Shown: piece after piece, positions 7,609-53,475 of the stretch
Position numbering within the stretch: position 1 is the first letter of the stretch
Layout of the letters: the number at the start of each line of letters is the position of its first letter
Source of the DNA: a virus
DNA length: 53,702 nucleotides
Reading direction: 5' to 3' (one strand)
IMG/VR virus record: IMGVR_UViG_3300033153_001952
Span: 1-53,702 of that record
The notes under the pieces: generated by a model
Told to the model about the DNA's origin: nothing
The model's database searches: none
What the model saw: the letters and a program-made list of their open reading frames with translations, nothing else
Translations under genes and position numbers: made by a program

Positions 7609-8496
7609 TTAAAATTCAATCCAAGGATCACCAACATTAATAGTCTTGATACCGAGCTCCTGCCAAGTACGGCACATAACTGGTCGGTCATCAATAGCCA
7701 TGCAGACATTACACTTACCATCCAACTCATTCCAAAGAAGTTCTTCTTTAATGATTGAGTCTTTACGGTTGTCGCCAGCTTCGCGCATGTACAGTGAAAA
7801 GTGTATAGGTACGTTGATATCAAGCCATTGCTTAGTTTCATCATAGCAGCAGCCATCACGCCCAGACAAAAATACAATCTTGTAGCCGTCACGCTTAAGG
7901 CCAACAACTATATCAATCACTTCTTCAATAGGTTCATCCTCACCAACCTTATCCCAATGGAACGGCCCTCTACCAGCCATACGAGCCACTGTACCATCAA
8001 CATCTACGATAACAGTTTGTGGTAGTGACCAATCCTGTACATACTGCTTACGGCCCTTATACTTCAGCCACTGTCCATACATACGAGCAATTACAGAGTG
8101 GCCCACACCATTAGCACGACGAGCATCACGCTTCCAAGCCTCTTCTAGTGAGATGGGGAACTCTTTAATCTCTACTTCAAACCCAGCCTTCTCTAGATAC
8201 GCAATAAGCAACTTACGATACTTAGGGTTAATATTAGTGTCTGAGATAATAACATCATGACCAAAACCTCTGACAAGCTCAATCTCACTATACTGAATAT
8301 CAGTAACTTTAGATTCATTCTTCCATTTATACTTAGCCCAGTTGCGCTCACCCTTGCAGAAGATCTCGAAGCGGATATCATCACGATTGACATTATGCCA
8401 CTGCCTACAGTTTAACCGCCACTGCTCTTTGATAAACTCCTCTGCCCAAGTAGATTTGCCTGAGCATGGAATCCCTACTGTCACTATTGCTTTCAT
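7609..8496 (-). CDS. pseT: Polynucleotide 5'-kinase/3'-phosphatase (T4 PseT-type)
   Basis: 295 residues, close to T4 Pnkp (301). The N-terminal kinase has the P-loop GIPCSGKST (residues 8-16), NRDDIR and SDTN; the C-terminal phosphatase of the acylphosphatase/HAD class has DVDGTVAR (about 165) and LSGRDG, with DDRPV near the end. The enzyme heals RNA breaks by removing 3' or cyclic phosphate and phosphorylating the 5' end. Its start overlaps the RNA ligase stop by four bases, so healing and sealing enzymes are co-translated. Confidence 0.92.
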   Translation of the reverse strand: MKAIVTVGIPCSGKSTWAEEFIKEQWRLNCRQWHNVNRDDIRFEIFCKGERNWAKYKWKNESKVTDIQYSEIELVRGFGHDVIISDTNINPKYRKLLIAYLEKAGFEVEIKEFPISLEEAWKRDARRANGVGHSVIARMYGQWLKYKGRKQYVQDWSLPQTVIVDVDGTVARMAGRGPFHWDKVGEDEPIEEVIDIVVGLKRDGYKIVFLSGRDGCCYDETKQWLDINVPIHFSLYMREAGDNRKDSIIKEELLWNELDGKCNVCMAIDDRPVMCRTWQELGIKTINVGDPWIEF

Positions 8497-9794
8497 TCTG
8501 CGCTCTCCTCACTCTCAACATCAGCCTCACCCTTATCAAGCATCTTAGTCTCATGACCAAGGAACTTGAAGCTCTTGTACTTGAAGCATTCAATACCGTT
8601 TCCACGCTCCACTCGAACTACAATACCCTCCTCTGGCACTTTGTTATTGCAAAAGTAAGAGTCTTGGTCATACACATACTCGCGTCCTAGGTGACCAAAG
8701 AAGGATTCAGAGAAAGACTCGCCCTGATTGTATGCTTCGTCGTGTACACGATCATCCATGAGTTCATATGCATTTCCGTAGTAAATCTCAGGAACCGTCT
8801 TAAACCCCATCTCTTCACAACGATGCTTAACCTGATGCCAAGGCATCTCAATAACATCACCATCCTCATTGGTAGAGGTCATTCGGTATACGTAGATCTC
8901 GCTAGTATTCGGAGCACATTTATAATCGTAACCTTTCTGTATCTCTTTACCACCGTCCGTGTGACCGACAAGTTCATAATAGACGCTTTCACCTTTACGT
9001 AGTTTGGTCTTGAACATGTTACCTGCCATCGTCCACAAGTCGCTGTCATAGAAGTGGTGGTATACTTTATCGTCATTTTTAATCACCTTTCGTGAACTAA
9101 ACACGTAGTCGTAGTAAGTATCGACAATATCCAGACCGAGCTTCTTACCAATGAGGTTCCAGATGCTAAATTCAGTCTTCTTGCACTTGACATATGCCGC
9201 CACACCTGAAGTACCGTGGAACTTCCAAGTGATAGATATGAGATCGTCTGGCTGCACTTTGTGCATATTACGGCCAAGCTGAGCCGTATCGAAGTGGAAA
9301 TTAAACTGCCCCTCAACCACACGCGACTCGCGCTTAGCTTTCTTGCCGTTAAGGCTGTTGCCTTCGGACTGCATACGCTTTGGTAGTTCAAACTTCTTAC
9401 TAACTTGCATACCAGCTACGATGTCAAGGTCATCACCATCCTCAAGAATTAGAGCTGCAAACTCAGGTATCTTGAAGAAGTCAGTAATAGTCATGAAATA
9501 ACCCATAGACTTCTCACCACGGAAGCTCTGAGCCCGTACACGGCGGTTCTTATCGAACATACCACCAGCAGGCTTACCATCCTCATCTTTACGACGAATC
9601 AAATCATTAGCGTCTGCCAGCTCCTGCCCAATCTGAGCTTCAAGTGGGAAGTAGATCCCAACATCACCCTCTTTAGCATCTAAGCCTACGATGATGTTGT
9701 TACCGAAAATGGTGGTACACATAAGCCGGTCTGCATTACTATGCTTGCGTACTTCGCCTAGCCGTACCACAACTGCACTATAATTACTACTCAT
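8493..9794 (-). CDS. RNA ligase, Rnl5/DraRnl-like
   Basis: 433 residues. An N-terminal OB-like segment (HSNADRLMCTTIFGNNIIVG, residues 18-37) precedes the nucleotidyltransferase domain with motif I KFHGTSG (Lys191 as the AMP acceptor). Motif III-like YYELVG, motif IV EEGIVVRVE and motif V YKSFKF follow. This order (OB domain first) fits the Deinococcus-type Rnl family that seals 3'-OH/5'-P RNA nicks. It lies between RlaP and Pnkp in one leftward operon. The acidic tail (ADVESEESAE) is extra. Confidence 0.85.
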   Translation of the reverse strand: MSSNYSAVVVRLGEVRKHSNADRLMCTTIFGNNIIVGLDAKEGDVGIYFPLEAQIGQELADANDLIRRKDEDGKPAGGMFDKNRRVRAQSFRGEKSMGYFMTITDFFKIPEFAALILEDGDDLDIVAGMQVSKKFELPKRMQSEGNSLNGKKAKRESRVVEGQFNFHFDTAQLGRNMHKVQPDDLISITWKFHGTSGVAAYVKCKKTEFSIWNLIGKKLGLDIVDTYYDYVFSSRKVIKNDDKVYHHFYDSDLWTMAGNMFKTKLRKGESVYYELVGHTDGGKEIQKGYDYKCAPNTSEIYVYRMTSTNEDGDVIEMPWHQVKHRCEEMGFKTVPEIYYGNAYELMDDRVHDEAYNQGESFSESFFGHLGREYVYDQDSYFCNNKVPEEGIVVRVERGNGIECFKYKSFKFLGHETKMLDKGEADVESEESAE

Positions 9795-10796
9795 TTAAGC
9801 CTCCTTAGCTGTACAATCCCTACATACAATATTCTCGTAAATAGCGAGTAATTTATTATTAAAGAATTCAGGGTCTACTGAATCGGGTAAGTCGCTACTA
9901 TCCGCTAATTTGCTAACAATGTCAACAATACTTTCGAGCTCTGGCTGAACATTGGTTGTAAAGTCAAACCTACCTTGCTTCACATCGAGAATATACCGAG
10001 TCTCAGGTAGTGGATAAGAGAACGTGCCTTCTGAGTATAGATACTTTAGTTGGTAGCCAGCACGTAGTGCGTGAGATACAGCTTTCCAATCTACACCATT
10101 ATTCTCTTTAGCTAGCCGAGCTCTCTCACCATACTCACCCCACATCCTATCGAGGTGTCCACGAAACTCCTCTAACTTGACAGTAGATTGATACTTGCGA
10201 CCTAGAATCTCGTAGAATACATGGTTACCAGTACCAGTCTCCATAACAACAACACCTGAGTGGTCTGTCTTAGGGAGTAACCTGATAATATCACCTACAA
10301 TTGCGTACCTATCAGGTACACCTCCCTCTCTAAATATGTCGTCATGTTCGCTAACCTCTGAGATAGCTTCTTCAAGGGTCTTCATCCGTGAGCCTTTAAT
10401 ACCGTATTTATATGCCTGCTTCTTAACGTAGCCCATGTACGCGCTCATATCCTTGGATAGGAATAGCTCTCGGTTAGCCACAAGCCAATCCCACAAAGGG
10501 GATGATTCAAGGAAATGCGTGGCCGGTGCGTGGAGCATATCAATAGCAACAGTCTCTCCTTTGATAGCTAGTTTCAGGAATGCTTGGAGGGAGTACATCT
10601 CAGTATCTACATCGTCTGCACCATTCTTACTGTTATTATCTCCAGTGGATTCTGCATATGAGAAGTTACCCTCTCCTTTGAGAATCTGTTCCTTAGTAGG
10701 CAGAGAGATGCCCTTATAGTCACGGTCAGACTCTGGGGTATCCAATCCGTACATATGACTGCCGAACAGCATCTTTACAATTACTTTATTCTCCAT
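9795..10796 (-). CDS. RlaP-like nucleotidyltransferase (pol beta superfamily)
   Basis: 333 residues from ATG at 10796, chosen for the GAGGAGG site. The N-terminus has the pol-beta signature GSHMYGLDTPESDRDYKG, with GS and DxD catalytic positions, followed by long helices. Such proteins (PF10127) are repeatedly linked with RNA ligases and were named RlaP in comparative work on RNA repair. A terminal nucleotide transfer step during repair is likely but unproven. The RNA ligase ATG follows its stop immediately. Confidence 0.82.
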   Translation of the reverse strand: MENKVIVKMLFGSHMYGLDTPESDRDYKGISLPTKEQILKGEGNFSYAESTGDNNSKNGADDVDTEMYSLQAFLKLAIKGETVAIDMLHAPATHFLESSPLWDWLVANRELFLSKDMSAYMGYVKKQAYKYGIKGSRMKTLEEAISEVSEHDDIFREGGVPDRYAIVGDIIRLLPKTDHSGVVVMETGTGNHVFYEILGRKYQSTVKLEEFRGHLDRMWGEYGERARLAKENNGVDWKAVSHALRAGYQLKYLYSEGTFSYPLPETRYILDVKQGRFDFTTNVQPELESIVDIVSKLADSSDLPDSVDPEFFNNKLLAIYENIVCRDCTAKEA

Positions 10797-10953
10797 TATC
10801 AACCTCCTCTTCAATAAGTTTAGCATTCTCCATCCTCACTATACGCATAGCTTCCTCATAAGTCCAGTAGTTTGAGTCCTGAACCTCATACATAGTGCAA
10901 TAACCATCATCTTCAAAGTAGATGTTGTAGTAGCAACCTTCAAAATTAGACAT
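10786..10953 (-). CDS. Hypothetical 55-residue protein
   Basis: ATG at 10953 with TTAGGAGGG. The protein (MSNFEGCYYNIYFEDDGYCT...) is acidic and aromatic. Its 3' end carries the ribosome site of the RlaP gene, with an 11-base overlap. It is small but well supported by ribosome site and context. Confidence 0.6.
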   Translation of the reverse strand: MSNFEGCYYNIYFEDDGYCTMYEVQDSNYWTYEEAMRIVRMENAKLIEEEVDNGE

Positions 10954-10976
10954 TAACCCTCCTAAGTAATTACTTC

Positions 10977-11005
10977 TTGACTTTAAGCTCTAAATATGTT
11001 ATAAT
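10977..11005 (+). promoter_or_regulatory. Rightward promoter lying antisense to a leftward gene
   Basis: TTGACT (10977-10982), 17 bases, TATAAT (11000-11005). It fires towards the virion operon but must first cross the oppositely oriented gene at 11012-11209. A 39-base block around it recurs at 17421-17459 with 33 identical positions. Confidence 0.7.
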
Positions 11006-11011
11006 CCGCCG

Positions 11012-15108: not shown

Positions 15109-16443
15109 ATGACTGAAGATGAGATTAGGTTTAATAAGAAGTTCATATGGATGCGCGAGAATGAGCCCGAGAAGTTGGCTAAAGTATTACGCGCAATGTC
15201 TGAAGAAGAGCTTAAGTCGATTCTTTATGATTGGAACTTATGGGCAAGACCTAATCAGCTAGCACCGAAGGGTGACTGGCGTACTTGGCTTGTTCTAGCA
15301 GGAAGAGGTTTTGGGAAGACGCGATGCGCTAATGAGTGGGTAATTCAGAGAGCTCGTGAAGGTAAGGGGCCGATTGCATTGATTGGCAAGACTACATCGG
15401 ATGTACGTGATACTATCATAGAGGTAGGTGAGTCTTCTATAATGAAGATTTCACATCCAGACTTCAAACCTATCTACGAGCCTTCTAAGCGCCGCTTGAC
15501 GTGGCCTAACGGTGTTACAGCCACTACCTTCTCTGGTGATGAGTGGGATCAGCTACGTGGCCCACAGCATAGAACTGTACTAATTGATGAGCTACCTAAG
15601 TTCGCTAATCCTGAAGAACTCTACACTCAGATGGATATGGGATTACGTATTGGTGATGATGCTCAGTGTATTGTATCTACAACACCATTACCAATTAAAA
15701 TAATCAAAGAGCTGTATGAGAAGTCTCAAATTGAAGGTAGCGATGTAGTACTCTCCACTGGCTCCACAATGGATAATGCAGCTAACCTAGGAAAGCGCTC
15801 AGTGGCCTCAATGGTGGCTAGATACAAAGGTACACGTATGGAGCGTCAGGAGCTCTATGGTGAGATTTTATGGTCTAGTGAAGATGCTCTATTTACTAAT
15901 GAGAATTTAGATGAGTTTAGAATTAGTCTAGAAGCTCTACCTGAGATGGTTAGAATAGTAGTTGCTGTTGACCCTGCTGTTACAAACAATAAGAATAGTG
16001 ACTCTACAGCTATCGTAGTGGCTGGTATGGATGCGCGTGGTCATGGCTATGTATTATTTGATGGTACTATGAAGGGTACACCCTCGGCATGGGCTAAGCG
16101 CACTGTAGCGTTATATGATGAGTATTGTGCAGATGTTGTATCTGTAGAGACTAATCAGGGCGGTGACTTGGTAGTAAGCACATTAGAGCAGCAGCGTAGG
16201 AATCTCCCAATCAAGAAGATACATGCGTCTAAGAGTAAGATTGCAAGAATGGAGCCTATCTCACTCTTAGCAGAGCAAGGTAAGGTTCACATGGTTGGAT
16301 ACTTTAAAGAGCTTGAGCAGCAATGCGTAGAGTATTCTGGCAAAGGCCCAAGTCCAGATAGATATGATGCTATGTGTTATGCACTCTCTGAGCTTATGTT
16401 AGGTAAAGTTAGCTCAGCTAGCACTAGCCAGTTTCATTATTGA
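15109..16443 (+). CDS. terL: Terminase large subunit
   Basis: 444 residues. The ATPase domain has Walker A LAGRGFGKTR (about residue 63) and Walker B TVLIDELPK (about 155). The C-terminal RNase H-like nuclease has VAVDPAVTN (285), VSVETNQGG (343) and PDRYDAMCYAL (414), giving the acidic metal-binding set. It cuts and translocates DNA into the prohead. It belongs to the Terminase_6 type. No small subunit is recognisable nearby. It ends with zero spacing against the oppositely oriented ligase gene. Confidence 0.92.
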   Translation: MTEDEIRFNKKFIWMRENEPEKLAKVLRAMSEEELKSILYDWNLWARPNQLAPKGDWRTWLVLAGRGFGKTRCANEWVIQRAREGKGPIALIGKTTSDVRDTIIEVGESSIMKISHPDFKPIYEPSKRRLTWPNGVTATTFSGDEWDQLRGPQHRTVLIDELPKFANPEELYTQMDMGLRIGDDAQCIVSTTPLPIKIIKELYEKSQIEGSDVVLSTGSTMDNAANLGKRSVASMVARYKGTRMERQELYGEILWSSEDALFTNENLDEFRISLEALPEMVRIVVAVDPAVTNNKNSDSTAIVVAGMDARGHGYVLFDGTMKGTPSAWAKRTVALYDEYCADVVSVETNQGGDLVVSTLEQQRRNLPIKKIHASKSKIARMEPISLLAEQGKVHMVGYFKELEQQCVEYSGKGPSPDRYDAMCYALSELMLGKVSSASTSQFHY

Positions 16444-17358
16444 TTACATATACTCCATATCACGCCAGCCGTAGTACCTAGGGAAGCGTGGCTTATCCTT
16501 AACCCCATAACCAAAGAAGCGCATTGTGAAGGTTCTTCCCTCACTGGCCTCTTGACCTGCATCCCAGATCTCCTTCCTCTCATCGTGTTTAAGGATGCCA
16601 CAACCTACATCTAAGGTAAGGCCATCCATATCGACAATAAACCCGCCCAACGTGTTTGCAGGAACCATACCAGCCTTGTGTGAACTACGCTGTGACCGGC
16701 CAAGCTCATTAGTGGTCTTCTTATTGGTGTTGGTCATTTGCTCAACTAGTGAGATGACAGTTACCTCCACATCAGTGAAGCGCTTGAGCTTAAACAGTGA
16801 ACCTTGCTTCATAGTAGCTCGACCATACTTATAAGTGCCATCTACACTACGGCCCATGATTCCTTCATAGCCAGCATCGAGCTGAGTTTTCTCAAATACT
16901 TCTAAGTCAGTTAAGTTTCCGATAAGGCTGTGCGGGACTAGTTTAACTTGCGGGTGACTATAAGCTTCTACTAAATCTCTTGCGCGAGCATATCTCACAT
17001 GGAACGGCTCATCTTTATACTCATCTTCATTAGTGTCAAATACATAGAGAGTTACATCGTCAATAGAGCGAGCTTCTTTCTTCTTCATGATTACGCGCTG
17101 AGTGTTGTTGTACACATCCTCATCTGTAGGGCTACCAACTATAAACTCACCATCAAGACCGTGAAAGCTTCCAAACGTACCTACTAGTAAGGTGTTAGGT
17201 AAATCTTTCAAAGTACGACTCAGGACGCGCCCATCGCGTATATTGGTACGAATACCATCTAATTTAGGCGAAGCCATTGTAGGGAGTTGAACCAAGTCAA
17301 AGAACGCTGGGTTCTTTAGTGGGTCATCGTTTGGTGCAAGCATTGTCTTGAATGTCAT
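16444..17358 (-). CDS. ATP-dependent DNA ligase
   Basis: 304 residues from ATG at 17358 (GAAGGAGG site; the open frame continues 13 codons upstream). Motif I is SPKLDGIR with the adenylated Lys; DGEFIVG (motif III), EGIMGR (motif IV) and LFKLKRF (motif V) follow, and the C-terminal part forms the OB domain. It joins DNA nicks, probably between Okazaki fragments. It has its own promoter at 17386-17414 and is inserted, in the opposite direction, between terminase and tRNA genes of the late module. Confidence 0.88.
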   Translation of the reverse strand: MTFKTMLAPNDDPLKNPAFFDLVQLPTMASPKLDGIRTNIRDGRVLSRTLKDLPNTLLVGTFGSFHGLDGEFIVGSPTDEDVYNNTQRVIMKKKEARSIDDVTLYVFDTNEDEYKDEPFHVRYARARDLVEAYSHPQVKLVPHSLIGNLTDLEVFEKTQLDAGYEGIMGRSVDGTYKYGRATMKQGSLFKLKRFTDVEVTVISLVEQMTNTNKKTTNELGRSQRSSHKAGMVPANTLGGFIVDMDGLTLDVGCGILKHDERKEIWDAGQEASEGRTFTMRFFGYGVKDKPRFPRYYGWRDMEYM

Positions 17359-17385
17359 AAAACCTCCTTCGATAGTTAATAAATC

Positions 17386-17414
17386 ACTATAACACACTAC
17401 AAACTAGTATGCAA
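17386..17414 (-). promoter_or_regulatory. Promoter of the DNA ligase gene
   Basis: On the minus strand TTGCAT (17409-17414), 17 bases, TATAGT (17386-17391), 28 bases before the ligase ATG. It is divergent from the tRNA promoter. Confidence 0.6.
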
Positions 17415-17425
17415 GCAAATACTTC

Positions 17426-17454
17426 TTGACTTTATAAGCTAATTATGTTATACT
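17426..17454 (+). promoter_or_regulatory. Promoter of the tRNA/ncRNA/portal unit
   Basis: TTGACT (17426-17431), 17 bases, TATACT (17449-17454), 14 bases before the first tRNA. Embedded in a 39-base block that closely repeats the promoter block at 10972-11010. Confidence 0.75.
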
Positions 17455-17468
17455 CCGCCTCTTGTATT

Positions 17469-17545
17469 GCTTGTGTAGCTCCAATTGGTAGAGCACCTGT
17501 TTTGTAATCAGGATGTTGTAGGTTCAAGTCCTATCATAAGCTCCA
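17469..17545 (+). tRNA. tRNA-Thr (anticodon TGT)
   Basis: Acceptor GCTTGTG/CATAAGC (one GU pair), D stem GCTC/GAGC, anticodon loop TTTGTAA, T arm GTAGG-TTCAAGT-CCTAT and an encoded CCA end. The anticodon stem has one mismatch next to the loop. It would read ACA codons. Confidence 0.93.
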
Positions 17546-17551
17546 AACAAT

Positions 17552-17626
17552 TCCTCGGAACGTATAGGGTATACGGGCTGACTGTTAATCAGTTGTTACT
17601 TGGTTCGATGCCAAGTCGGGGAGCCA
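17552..17626 (+). tRNA. tRNA-Asn (anticodon GTT)
   Basis: Acceptor TCCTCGG/TCGGGGA, D stem CGTA/TACG, anticodon stem GCTGA/TCAGT with loop CTGTTAA, T arm CTTGG-TTCGATG-CCAAG, discriminator G and encoded CCA. It starts six bases after the tRNA-Thr and shares its promoter. Confidence 0.93.
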
Positions 17627-17709
17627 ATAAGTAAAGTGTAGCAGAGTGGAATGAGTTTAGCAACTATCTTTCCCCACTATAAATAATAATAAAGAAAGTG
17701 TTCGTTTAG

Positions 17710-17991
17710 TAGTTCATCTTTAGAGGGTGGATGTGCCTGACCTCACTCAGAGTGCTCAGGATAAAACAGCGATTATGTGGTGTCAACTAGTTATTTAGAT
17801 TAGTTGCTAGGATTCCTCACGGATGAGGACGGGGTTTATGAGTATCCCTCGACAGTAGATTCACTATCTATTCAAAACTGCGCTGATAATAACTACTAAC
17901 TGATTAGAGTAACTAATTTAAGTAATAGAGAAGTATAAGAGGTAGGGTCACTAATATCCCTAACCACTATATACCCTCTAAGTGACAACTA
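17710..17991 (+). ncRNA. Large structured non-coding RNA element
   Basis: The 380 bases between tRNA-Asn and the next gene have no convincing reading frame but strong RNA structure. TAGTT-N5-TTAGAGGGT (17710-17728) pairs with ACCCTCTAA-N5-AACTA (17973-17991), a 14-pair closing helix with a symmetric 5x5 internal loop. Inside are hairpins CCTGA/TCAGG with inner CACT/AGTG (17736-17760), CAACTA/TAGTTG (17784-17806), CCTCA/TGAGG (17815-17828), GGGG/TCCC (17831-17848), TAGAT/ATCTA (17856-17870), ATTAG/CTAAT (17903-17917) and GGTAGGG/CCCTAACC (17941-17965). It is read from the tRNA promoter. It lacks recognisable group I intron, tmRNA or hammerhead cores. Function unknown. Confidence 0.65.
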
Positions 17992-18009
17992 TATCTTGGA
18001 GAAAATAGC

Positions 18010-18315
18010 TTGGCCTTAATTAATAGTTTATATAACTACCACCCTGATGAGCATCCCACAGAAGAGGAAGCATGTCAGCCTGATTTTCATTATGAACTAT
18101 TCTCCATCTTACGTAAACAAGTTAGAAAAGACAAGCCTAAGTACAAGGTAAGGTCACTACATCAAATATACAAATATTTCTGTGAGCAATCACAAACCCG
18201 CATGAGACATAAAACTCGTGACGGTAAGACACTCTGGCTGTATCAAGTAGCTAGATATATAGAACGCCATCAATATGTCCACTGTGACATGAGGGCTTTC
18301 AAAACAAACATCTAG
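18010..18315 (+). CDS. Hypothetical protein upstream of the portal gene (TTG start)
   Basis: 101 residues. The only start with a ribosome site is TTG at 18010, eight bases after GGAG. The protein is basic and aromatic with His and Tyr (SLHQIYKYFCEQSQTRMRHK), perhaps a helical DNA- or RNA-contact protein. Its place before the portal gene would suit a small terminase, but I see no helix-turn-helix to support that. Confidence 0.55.
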   Translation: MALINSLYNYHPDEHPTEEEACQPDFHYELFSILRKQVRKDKPKYKVRSLHQIYKYFCEQSQTRMRHKTRDGKTLWLYQVARYIERHQYVHCDMRAFKTNI

Positions 18316-18326
18316 GGACTTCGCTT

Positions 18327-19769
18327 ATGCCAAGAAAAAAGAAAGCAACAGTTGCTACTCCATGCCCTCAGTACGTAAAAATGACTGAGAGTTGGGCATT
18401 ACCAGATGCCTTATTGGGTAGTACACCAGCAATGAAGGCTGGAGGCCGTACATGGTTACCTAAAGATCCTAAAGAATCTGACGGTGCTTACAAAGTAAGG
18501 TTAGAGAGGACAGTCCTCTACGGCGCTTACAAACGCACTGTACAAGCTTTATCAGGGTTACCTTTCCACAGGGCTGTAGTAGTTACTAAAGCACCAGCCG
18601 ACTTAGACTATTTATCGGAGGACTGCGATAGTGATAACAGCGACATTACAGATTTTTCACACACTCTTACAAAAGACCTTAATACCTACGGACTATCTCA
18701 CTTCCTTGTTGATAATCCTGACGTAGAAGCAGAGGTAACTCTTGCTTACAAAGAGAAGTATAAAGTCAGACCTTACTTCACTCACATATCACCAAAGAAT
18801 ATCATATCATGGAGTACAGAGTTAGTTGGCGGAGCCACTATCCTTCGTTCCATACGGATACTTGAAACAGTAACCGAAGATGTTGATGAGTGGGAAGTCG
18901 TAGAGGTTCAGCAGATTCGGGTAATCACTGAAGACTCTCATACTTTATATAGGCAAGCAAGTAGAGATAAGTGGGAAGTGTACGGCGTTCCTCTTATTAA
19001 TAACTTGGGGTATATACCTTTAGTAACTATATATGGTGAACGTACAGGGTATATGACAGCAAGCGTACCGTTAGAGGATTTGGCTTGGCTTAACTTAAGA
19101 CATTATCAGAAACTGTCTGACTTGGATAATATTGAGCATGTTGCTAATGTTCCACTACTCTTAGCTACAGGTGTAGAAGAGGGTCAGTTGGAAGGTATAA
19201 CTATCGGGCCTAACACGCTTATCAATCTATCAGACTCCTCAGCAACGCTTAAGTATGTAGAGCACTCAGGACAAGCCATTACAGCCTCTCAGAAGTCCAT
19301 AGACAAGCTCGAAGAGCGTATGGCTAGTATGGGTGCTGACCAAGTGATACGTAAGAGCGTAGACAGACAGACAGCCACTGCACGAGCACTTGATGCTAGT
19401 GAGAGTGTGAGTATGTTGCAATTGTTCATCAATAACGTAGAGACTGGTATTAAACGTGGATACGAGATTGCCGGTGATTGGATTGACGTAGAAGCTGAAG
19501 ACGTTAACGTAAGCATTGGTAGTTGGATGGATAGCGGTGCTGGTGGGCCTAACTTTATAGACTTGTTAGCCAATTACTTAATAGAGAACGAAGGTATGCC
19601 GTTAGACGAGGCAGTTAAAGAATTACAACGCAGGGGTTCATTATCAGATACGTTTGAGTTGCCGAAAGGCACTAAGCTTATTCCAGAACCAGCGCCAGTA
19701 CCTGCTGCATTTGCAGTTGCTGGTGAAGAAGAGATTAAACCTCTTGAAGAGGAACAACCGTCAGAGTGA
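18327..19769 (+). CDS. Portal protein (DUF4055-type)
   Basis: 480 residues, the usual size for siphovirus portals. It has the GAYKVRLERTVLYGAYKRTV helix near residue 55, the LTKDLNTYGLSHFLVD core, a PLEDLAWLNLRHYQ stem segment and a C-terminal helical clip ending in an acidic, proline-rich tail. This matches DUF4055 phage portals. Twelve copies would form the DNA channel at the head vertex. It follows terminase in the normal head-gene order once the ligase/tRNA insert is ignored. Confidence 0.82.
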   Translation: MPRKKKATVATPCPQYVKMTESWALPDALLGSTPAMKAGGRTWLPKDPKESDGAYKVRLERTVLYGAYKRTVQALSGLPFHRAVVVTKAPADLDYLSEDCDSDNSDITDFSHTLTKDLNTYGLSHFLVDNPDVEAEVTLAYKEKYKVRPYFTHISPKNIISWSTELVGGATILRSIRILETVTEDVDEWEVVEVQQIRVITEDSHTLYRQASRDKWEVYGVPLINNLGYIPLVTIYGERTGYMTASVPLEDLAWLNLRHYQKLSDLDNIEHVANVPLLLATGVEEGQLEGITIGPNTLINLSDSSATLKYVEHSGQAITASQKSIDKLEERMASMGADQVIRKSVDRQTATARALDASESVSMLQLFINNVETGIKRGYEIAGDWIDVEAEDVNVSIGSWMDSGAGGPNFIDLLANYLIENEGMPLDEAVKELQRRGSLSDTFELPKGTKLIPEPAPVPAAFAVAGEEEIKPLEEEQPSE

Positions 19770-20615: not shown

Positions 20616-20810
20616 TGAGCACTGAAACTATTTAGTTATAATAACACGGATAATAATAACAAGGAAGTAACTAATTCGTTGTGTTGCAATGGTGCAGCAC
20701 GGCAAATGAAATTTCATAGTGGGGGAGCCACTTAGAAAGAGTCGAAAGACTCAAAACTGTTTGGTCACAATATGTGGCTTCCATAGGTAAATCTCATAAG
20801 GAGAAGTATT
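20616..20810 (+). promoter_or_regulatory. Structured leader of the major capsid gene
   Basis: The 195 non-coding bases hold several hairpins: AACTA/TAGTT (near 20631-20642), GTGTTGC/GCAGCAC (near 20679-20698), GAGTC-gaaa-GACTC (near 20738-20751), and a long-range AGCCAC (near 20727) to GTGGCT (near 20774). Only very short frames occur in it. A strong AAGGAG site precedes the capsid ATG. It may control capsid mRNA processing, stability or translation; no promoter with a good -35 is seen. Confidence 0.45.
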
Positions 20811-52967: not shown

Positions 52968-53084
52968 GTGACGCAATGGGACTCGAACCCATGACCAGCA
53001 GGTTCTCAGCAACTTTAAGATAGGATATCTCCTACCAGCTATTACTGAGTTTACCTGTTGCTCTTCCAACTGAGCTACACGCCT
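52968..53084 (-). tRNA. tRNA-like gene interrupted in the anticodon loop
   Basis: Minus strand. D arm GCTC-AGTTGGAA-GAGC, T arm ATGGG-TTCGAGT-CCCAT and 5-base variable loop are canonical. The anticodon stem CAGG/CCTG encloses 51 bases (53003-53053) instead of seven, an insert of about 44. The insert folds by itself: CTCAG/CTGAG and TAGGA-gata-TCCTA. The acceptor stem AGGCGTG/TGCGTCA has three GU pairs and a 1-72 mismatch, and no CCA is encoded. If the last loop bases CTGAGAA are used, the anticodon would be GAG, which does not suit the short variable loop. Identity unknown. Confidence 0.5.
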
Positions 53085-53228
53085 CGCCTCTATCTAGAAT
53101 GAGACTTGTTACACATCTATATAACCACTACTGTTTAAATCGGTGCGAAAATAGATTAGAATCCGTATAGAAAGAGGAGACACCCTCTGATCTACTTTGA
53201 CATGGACTTTCACCTATTCTCGCATGTT

Positions 53229-53342
53229 TGGCAGATAGTGATGGATTCTCACCACCGAGTAGCCTCATTGGCCGAGACTAGCATAAGTTCAGCTCGTGTG
53301 TACACACTCTCTTTTTGGTCGCTTACTTCCTGCTTACTATCT
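53229..53342 (-). ncRNA. tRNA-like element with CCA end
   Basis: Minus strand. Perfect acceptor AGATAGT/ACTATCT with discriminator G and CCA. T-arm position has GGTGG-TGAGAAT-CCATC, but the loop lacks the TTC signature. A 7-bp variable-like arm TAGTCTC/GAGGCTA precedes it. The 5' half, with palindrome GTGTGTACACAC, does not form a standard D or anticodon arm. It lies nine bases before the 3' end of the Leu-like gene. It may be a tRNA mimic or a degenerate tRNA. Confidence 0.4.
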
Positions 53343-53351
53343 ATTGTCCGG

Positions 53352-53475
53352 TGCGGATGGCAGGGCTCGAACCTACACTCTCTTAATAGAACCGTTTTCG
53401 CCCTACCTCGCATTGAATAAGCAATACTTAGTAGTTAGCTACTCACAGCGTGTCTACCAATTCCACCACATCCGC
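53352..53475 (-). tRNA. tRNA-Leu-like gene interrupted in the anticodon loop
   Basis: Minus strand. Acceptor GCGGATG/CATCCGC, Leu-type D arm GTG-GAATTGGTAGA-CAC, long variable arm around TTCT/AGAG, and T arm GTAGG-TTCGAGC-CCTGC. The anticodon stem GCTGT/ACGGT encloses 49 bases (53396-53444), an insert of about 42. The insert has hairpins AGTAG-ctaa-CTACT and ATTG-cttatt-CAAT. Length is 124 against about 85 for normal tRNA-Leu. The anticodon cannot be stated. Confidence 0.55.

What the first reader, a model, noticed from the sequence alone, without database searches (positions are those of the whole stretch)
17710..17991. New candidate 280-nt structured RNA closed by a long-range helix
A 14-pair interrupted helix with a symmetric 5x5 internal loop joins sequences 244 nt apart and encloses at least seven hairpins. 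It lies in a promoter-driven transcript after two tRNAs and before the portal operon, has no convincing ORF, and fits no class I know.
Basis: seen in the sequence. Interest (0 to 1): 0.75.

Follow-up and report, generated by a model that had tools for sequence, protein, structure and literature searches.

The report
Orphan structured spacer beside phage tRNAs
Between two tRNA genes and the portal gene of an uncultured phage lies a gene-free stretch that can fold around an unusually long RNA stem, but no relative of it was found, so whether it is a working RNA or only a spacer stays open.

Summary
The described pairing is in the sequence at the stated coordinates. The 14-pair interrupted closing helix (17710-17714/17987-17991 plus 17720-17728/17973-17981) is rarer than chance within this gap (about 1 in 300 shuffles), but it is weakly populated in longer transcripts. 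Whole-segment folding is only marginally better than shuffles (8 of 200), and the whole gap is no better (42 of 100). The stretch is noncoding, follows tRNA-Thr and tRNA-Asn behind a good promoter, and ends just before the ribosome site of a 101-aa orphan ORF and the portal gene. It sits in an accessory islet between terminase and portal. No homologue turned up in phages, plasmids, IMG/VR patterns or about 140 relatives' loci, so covariation cannot be tested. Best reading: a tRNA-operon trailer/portal-operon leader with one real structured domain, placed like T4 rnaC/rnaD. A chance-structured spacer is nearly as likely. Two tRNA-like genes with swollen anticodon arms at the window's right end, in a phage encoding an RNA-repair trio, may be the better lead.

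The parts
17420..17459 (+). Promoter (TTGACT-17-TATACT, extended -10 TG) that reads into the tRNAs and onward
   Evidence: a second copy of the same sequence block lies at 10972-11010
17469..17545 (+). tRNA-Thr (TGT)
   Evidence: ARAGORN; Rfam tRNA 59.3 bits
17552..17626 (+). tRNA-Asn (GTT)
   Evidence: Rfam tRNA 37.7 bits
17627..18009 (+). Noncoding gap, co-transcribed by position; no terminator-like site found between the tRNAs and the portal gene
17710..17728 (+). 5' strand of the closing helix (TAGTT, 5-nt loop, TTAGAGGGT)
17973..17991 (+). 3' strand of the closing helix (ACCCTCTAA, 5-nt loop, AACTA)
17790..17808 (+). 5' strand of the 19-bp helix, best-supported element
17908..17926 (+). 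3' strand of the 19-bp helix
17809..17907 (+). 99 nt enclosed by the 19-bp helix, three predicted hairpins
18010..18315 (+). 101-aa orphan ORF (TTG start, GGAG 8 nt upstream) directly after the element
   Evidence: no homologue; low-confidence model without fold match
18327..19769 (+). Portal protein (PHROG 145, DUF4055)

Best explanation
The stretch is the noncoding spacer of one transcription unit: trailer of the tRNA-Thr/tRNA-Asn operon and leader of the 101-aa ORF and portal operon. It carries one locally folded domain (17785-17931, a 19-bp helix topped by three hairpins), perhaps enclosed by a weaker outer helix. Most likely it works in cis: once the tRNAs are cut out of the precursor, the domain shields the new 5' end of the late mRNA or offers a long duplex for a processing ribonuclease, so tRNA maturation and portal-operon expression are uncoupled. 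Shown: position, lack of ORF, promoter match, pairing. Inferred: co-transcription, processing and function.
For: Promoter upstream of the tRNAs, with a second copy elsewhere in the genome. No terminator-like site from the tRNAs to the portal gene. The 19-bp helix is rare by shuffling (1/1000), longest in the window and stable in every transcript context tried. Local domain z=-2.94, 2/200. The four departures from perfect inverted repetition are all G-U on the + strand, which fits selection on the RNA of that strand. The element ends 7 nt before the GGAG of the next ORF, whose ribosome site is mostly unpaired in the 17627-18100 and 17700-18100 folds.
Against: No relative, so no conservation or covariation. 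Whole-gap stability equals shuffles. In a transcript 17461-18150 the ribosome site is predicted paired, so the fold depends on where processing starts. The p-values were computed after the region was chosen: across the whole window one helix of 19 bp is not surprising.
Confidence: 0.38

Rival explanations
1. Unselected spacer of an accessory islet. Genes come and go between terminase and portal in this phage group; what lies between the tRNAs and the 101-aa ORF is left-over sequence, and the pairing is chance found by looking.
For: Whole-gap z=-0.22; segment only 8/200; relatives place other things at this junction: portal directly after terminase (L136), an HNH-like ORF (L003), attC-flanked cassettes (L001); no homologue anywhere searched.
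Against: Two nested compatible helices, each about 0.1-0.3% in shuffles; phage genomes rarely keep about 380 nt of noncoding DNA, and this is the longest clean gap of the window.
Confidence: 0.33
2. A stable trans-acting small RNA cut from the tRNA precursor, like T4 rnaC/rnaD, with an unknown target.
For: Same place as T4 rnaD and rnaC, which directly follow the last tRNA of the T4 operon and are annotated as small stable RNAs; GOLLD and ROOL RNAs are also often near phage tRNAs (PMC12286853; PMC7567579); the phage has RNA-repair enzymes.
Against: No sequence or model similarity to the T4 region or to any Rfam family; no terminator-like 3' end; the predicted structure runs almost into the ribosome site of the next ORF, which suits a leader.
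Confidence: 0.23
3. A DNA element (packaging, recombination or replication site) near the terminase and portal genes whose inverted repeats act as DNA.
For: Position between terminase and portal genes.
Against: As DNA the long arms match at only 15 of 19 positions, whereas all 19 pair as + strand RNA; no shared repeat elsewhere in the window.
Confidence: 0.06

Closest known systems
T4 rnaC and rnaD (species 1 and 2 RNAs)
   Same: Noncoding RNAs directly 3' of the last tRNA of a phage tRNA operon
   Different: 139 and 119 nt; no match to the R2 model; rnaC carries a T-arm-like hairpin (GGGUUCGAAUCCC), absent here
GOLLD and ROOL RNAs
   Same: Phage ncRNAs often beside tRNAs (PMC12286853)
   Different: GOLLD often exceeds 800 nt and both are conserved classes with complex folds; no Rfam match here
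Theta (HDV-like) ribozymes
   Same: Follow phage tRNAs (PMC10879173)
   Different: Cleavage site lies within 5 nt of the tRNA end; here the tRNA is followed by ATAAGTAAAG, no HDV-like match
Retron msr-msd RNA
   Same: Outer helix enclosing hairpins and one long stem
   Different: No reverse transcriptase in the window

Membership tests
T4 rnaC/rnaD-type stable RNA | Directly 3' of the last tRNA of a phage operon | tested here: met
   gap starts at 17627, right after tRNA-Asn
T4 rnaC/rnaD-type stable RNA | Sequence or structure similarity | tested here: not met
   no match of model R2 in the T4 region; no blastn hit to T4
T4 rnaC/rnaD-type stable RNA | Discrete stable RNA in vivo | not testable with these tools
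   Needs RNA-seq or northern blot
GOLLD / ROOL | Match to the Rfam covariance models | tested here: not met
   permissive threshold
Theta ribozyme | HDV-like fold with its cleavage site within 5 nt of the tRNA 3' end | tested here: not met
   no HDV-like hit up to E=5; sequence after the tRNA starts ATAAGTAAAG
Retron | Reverse transcriptase gene | tested here: not met
   PF00078 absent, controls rang
New conserved structured-RNA class | Covarying homologues | tested here: inconclusive
   No homologue found; near relatives of the record may be hidden from the tools

The most novel reading that the evidence does not exclude
A new class of phage RNA made from the 3' end of a tRNA operon, built around a 19-bp stem with three hairpins and an outer closing helix, acting in trans or as a substrate of the phage's own RNA-repair enzymes.
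Probability: 0.1. Interest if true: 0.55.

Novelty: new member of a known kind. Interest (0 to 1): 0.27.

Why it matters
Noncoding RNAs beside phage tRNA genes (T4 rnaC/D, GOLLD, ROOL) are long known and functionally unexplained. If this one is real it adds an orphan case in a phage that also encodes RNA kinase/phosphatase, RNA ligase and RlaP, a setting in which tRNA-linked RNAs could be tested as repair substrates or decoys. If it is a spacer, it shows how easily a convincing long-range fold can be drawn in AT-rich phage DNA.

Tried and rejected
Rfam at permissive thresholds: only a chance snoRNA match. Blastn against phages and plasmids: tRNA similarity or matches of up to about 30 bases only. 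Two exact patterns in IMG/VR: nothing. Single-sequence covariance models over relatives' loci: L078 13.6 bits is a terminator-like hairpin at the end of a putative capsid gene; L135 12.0 bits is 52 nt and at chance level. An nhmmer hit in L072 just before portal lies inside a large ORF. Complementarity to tRNA-Asn equals shuffles, P=0.38. TATAAATA, resembling a T4-type late promoter (recalled from memory), at 17678: not enriched. Retron: no reverse transcriptase. No convincing tandem repeat. Decayed gene: judged only by the many stops in all six frames; the frames were not searched against protein libraries. One genome-wide stability run timed out and was repeated smaller.

Full report
Setting. 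The window is a 53.7-kb virus record from IMG/VR. Around the finding the order is terminase large subunit (15109-16443, +), ATP-dependent DNA ligase (16444-17397, -), promoter (17426-17454), tRNA-Thr, tRNA-Asn, the noncoding gap 17627-18009, a 101-aa ORF with a TTG start at 18010, and portal at 18327. The gap is the longest clean intergenic stretch in the window (nominal gaps as long or longer overlap ORFs).

The observation. The closing helix is real and correctly placed: TAGTT/AACTA, 5x5 loop, TTAGAGGGT/ACCCTCTAA. In shuffles of the whole gap a long-range interrupted helix this good appears in about 0.3%. The lowest-energy fold of the segment has seven enclosed hairpins. It is the longest such helix with span up to 300 nt on either strand of the window. 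Across 53.7 kb one such helix would not be surprising; inside one 282-nt segment it is.

Limits of the observation. Whole-segment energy is only marginal (z=-1.9, 8/200); the whole gap is average (z=-0.22). In 160-nt windows along the + strand, only one start position in the gap (17760, z=-3.7) falls in the lowest 1% of the genome (20 shuffles per window). The outer helix is 0.53-0.69 populated at 37 C in the 17627-18012 fold, under 0.1 at 20 C, and about 0.15 in a longer transcript; the 19-bp helix holds at 0.94-0.98. The local domain alone has z=-2.94, 2/200. The opposite strand has z=-1.18.

Relatives. Portal searches gave one relative at 66% identity (L001), one at 55% (L002) and many near 30-41%; the capsid protein added L136-L138 at 47-51%. 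None has a similar sequence by blastn, nhmmer or covariance models built from the single sequence. A single-sequence model finds only fairly close relatives, and records very near the window may be hidden, so absence is weak evidence. The interval between terminase and portal differs among relatives: portal directly after terminase (L136), an HNH-like ORF (L003), cassettes with attC-like sites upstream of portal (L001; the L001 contig ends before its terminase). So the finding lies in an accessory islet.

Interpretation. The surroundings fit one transcription unit from the tRNA promoter to the portal gene: no terminator-like site was found in between, and the promoter block occurs twice in the genome. 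The element ends 7 nt before the GGAG of the next ORF. I favour a trailer/leader spacer with one true structured domain, working in cis on processing or stability (0.38), closely followed by a spacer with chance structure (0.33) and by a stable trans RNA like T4 rnaC/rnaD (0.23). In T4 those two RNAs follow the last tRNA of the operon, the same relative place, but there is no sequence or model similarity.

Known kinds. No Rfam family matches. GOLLD and ROOL (PMC12286853), theta ribozymes (PMC10879173) and retrons (no reverse transcriptase) were considered and do not fit.

Side finding worth more attention. On the minus strand at the right end two tRNA-like genes have the anticodon arm swollen by an insert: 53475-53352 (Rfam tRNA 39.1 bits, 124 nt) and 53084-52968 (33.8 bits, 117 nt), the second a clean cloverleaf with an extended anticodon arm (z=-3.8). 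T4 rnaC (139 nt) likewise keeps a T-arm-like hairpin (GGGUUCGAAUCCC) on an enlarged RNA, though Rfam's tRNA models do not accept it above their cut-off. The phage encodes PNKP, RNA ligase and RlaP homologues at 7609-10826.

Noticed in passing
window 52968-53084 and 53352-53475, minus strand: Two tRNA-like genes with roughly 35-50-nt inserts in the anticodon arm (Rfam tRNA 33.8 and 39.1 bits); the first folds as a cloverleaf with a long extended anticodon arm. They could be T4 rnaC-like RNAs or intron-bearing tRNAs.
   Followed up: partly
window 7609-10826, minus strand: RNA-repair trio: PNKP-like kinase/phosphatase, RNA ligase, RlaP, in a phage with unusual tRNA-like genes.
   Followed up: no
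window 53085-53351, minus strand: A second ~267-nt stretch without a large ORF between two tRNA-like genes, with long stems (z=-2.0, 8/200), similar in layout to the finding but not in sequence.
   Followed up: partly
window 20616-20810, plus strand: Noncoding leader of the major capsid gene, far more structured than the finding (z=-3.5, 0/200); it overlaps the lowest-z 160-nt window of the + strand.
   Followed up: partly
L001 1-1680: Phage contig with three attC-like integron sites and gene cassettes (one a SocA/Panacea-domain protein) directly upstream of portal; integron sites in phages are described in PMC9892861.
   Followed up: partly
window 10972-11010 and 17420-17459: Two copies of one strong promoter block, TACTTCTTGACTTT..AAGCT..ATGTTATA(A/C)TCCGCC.
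   Followed up: partly
window 17910, 20668, 21811, 25096: TAACTAATT occurs four times, all on the + strand in gaps of the head-gene region, against 0.8 expected.
   Followed up: no
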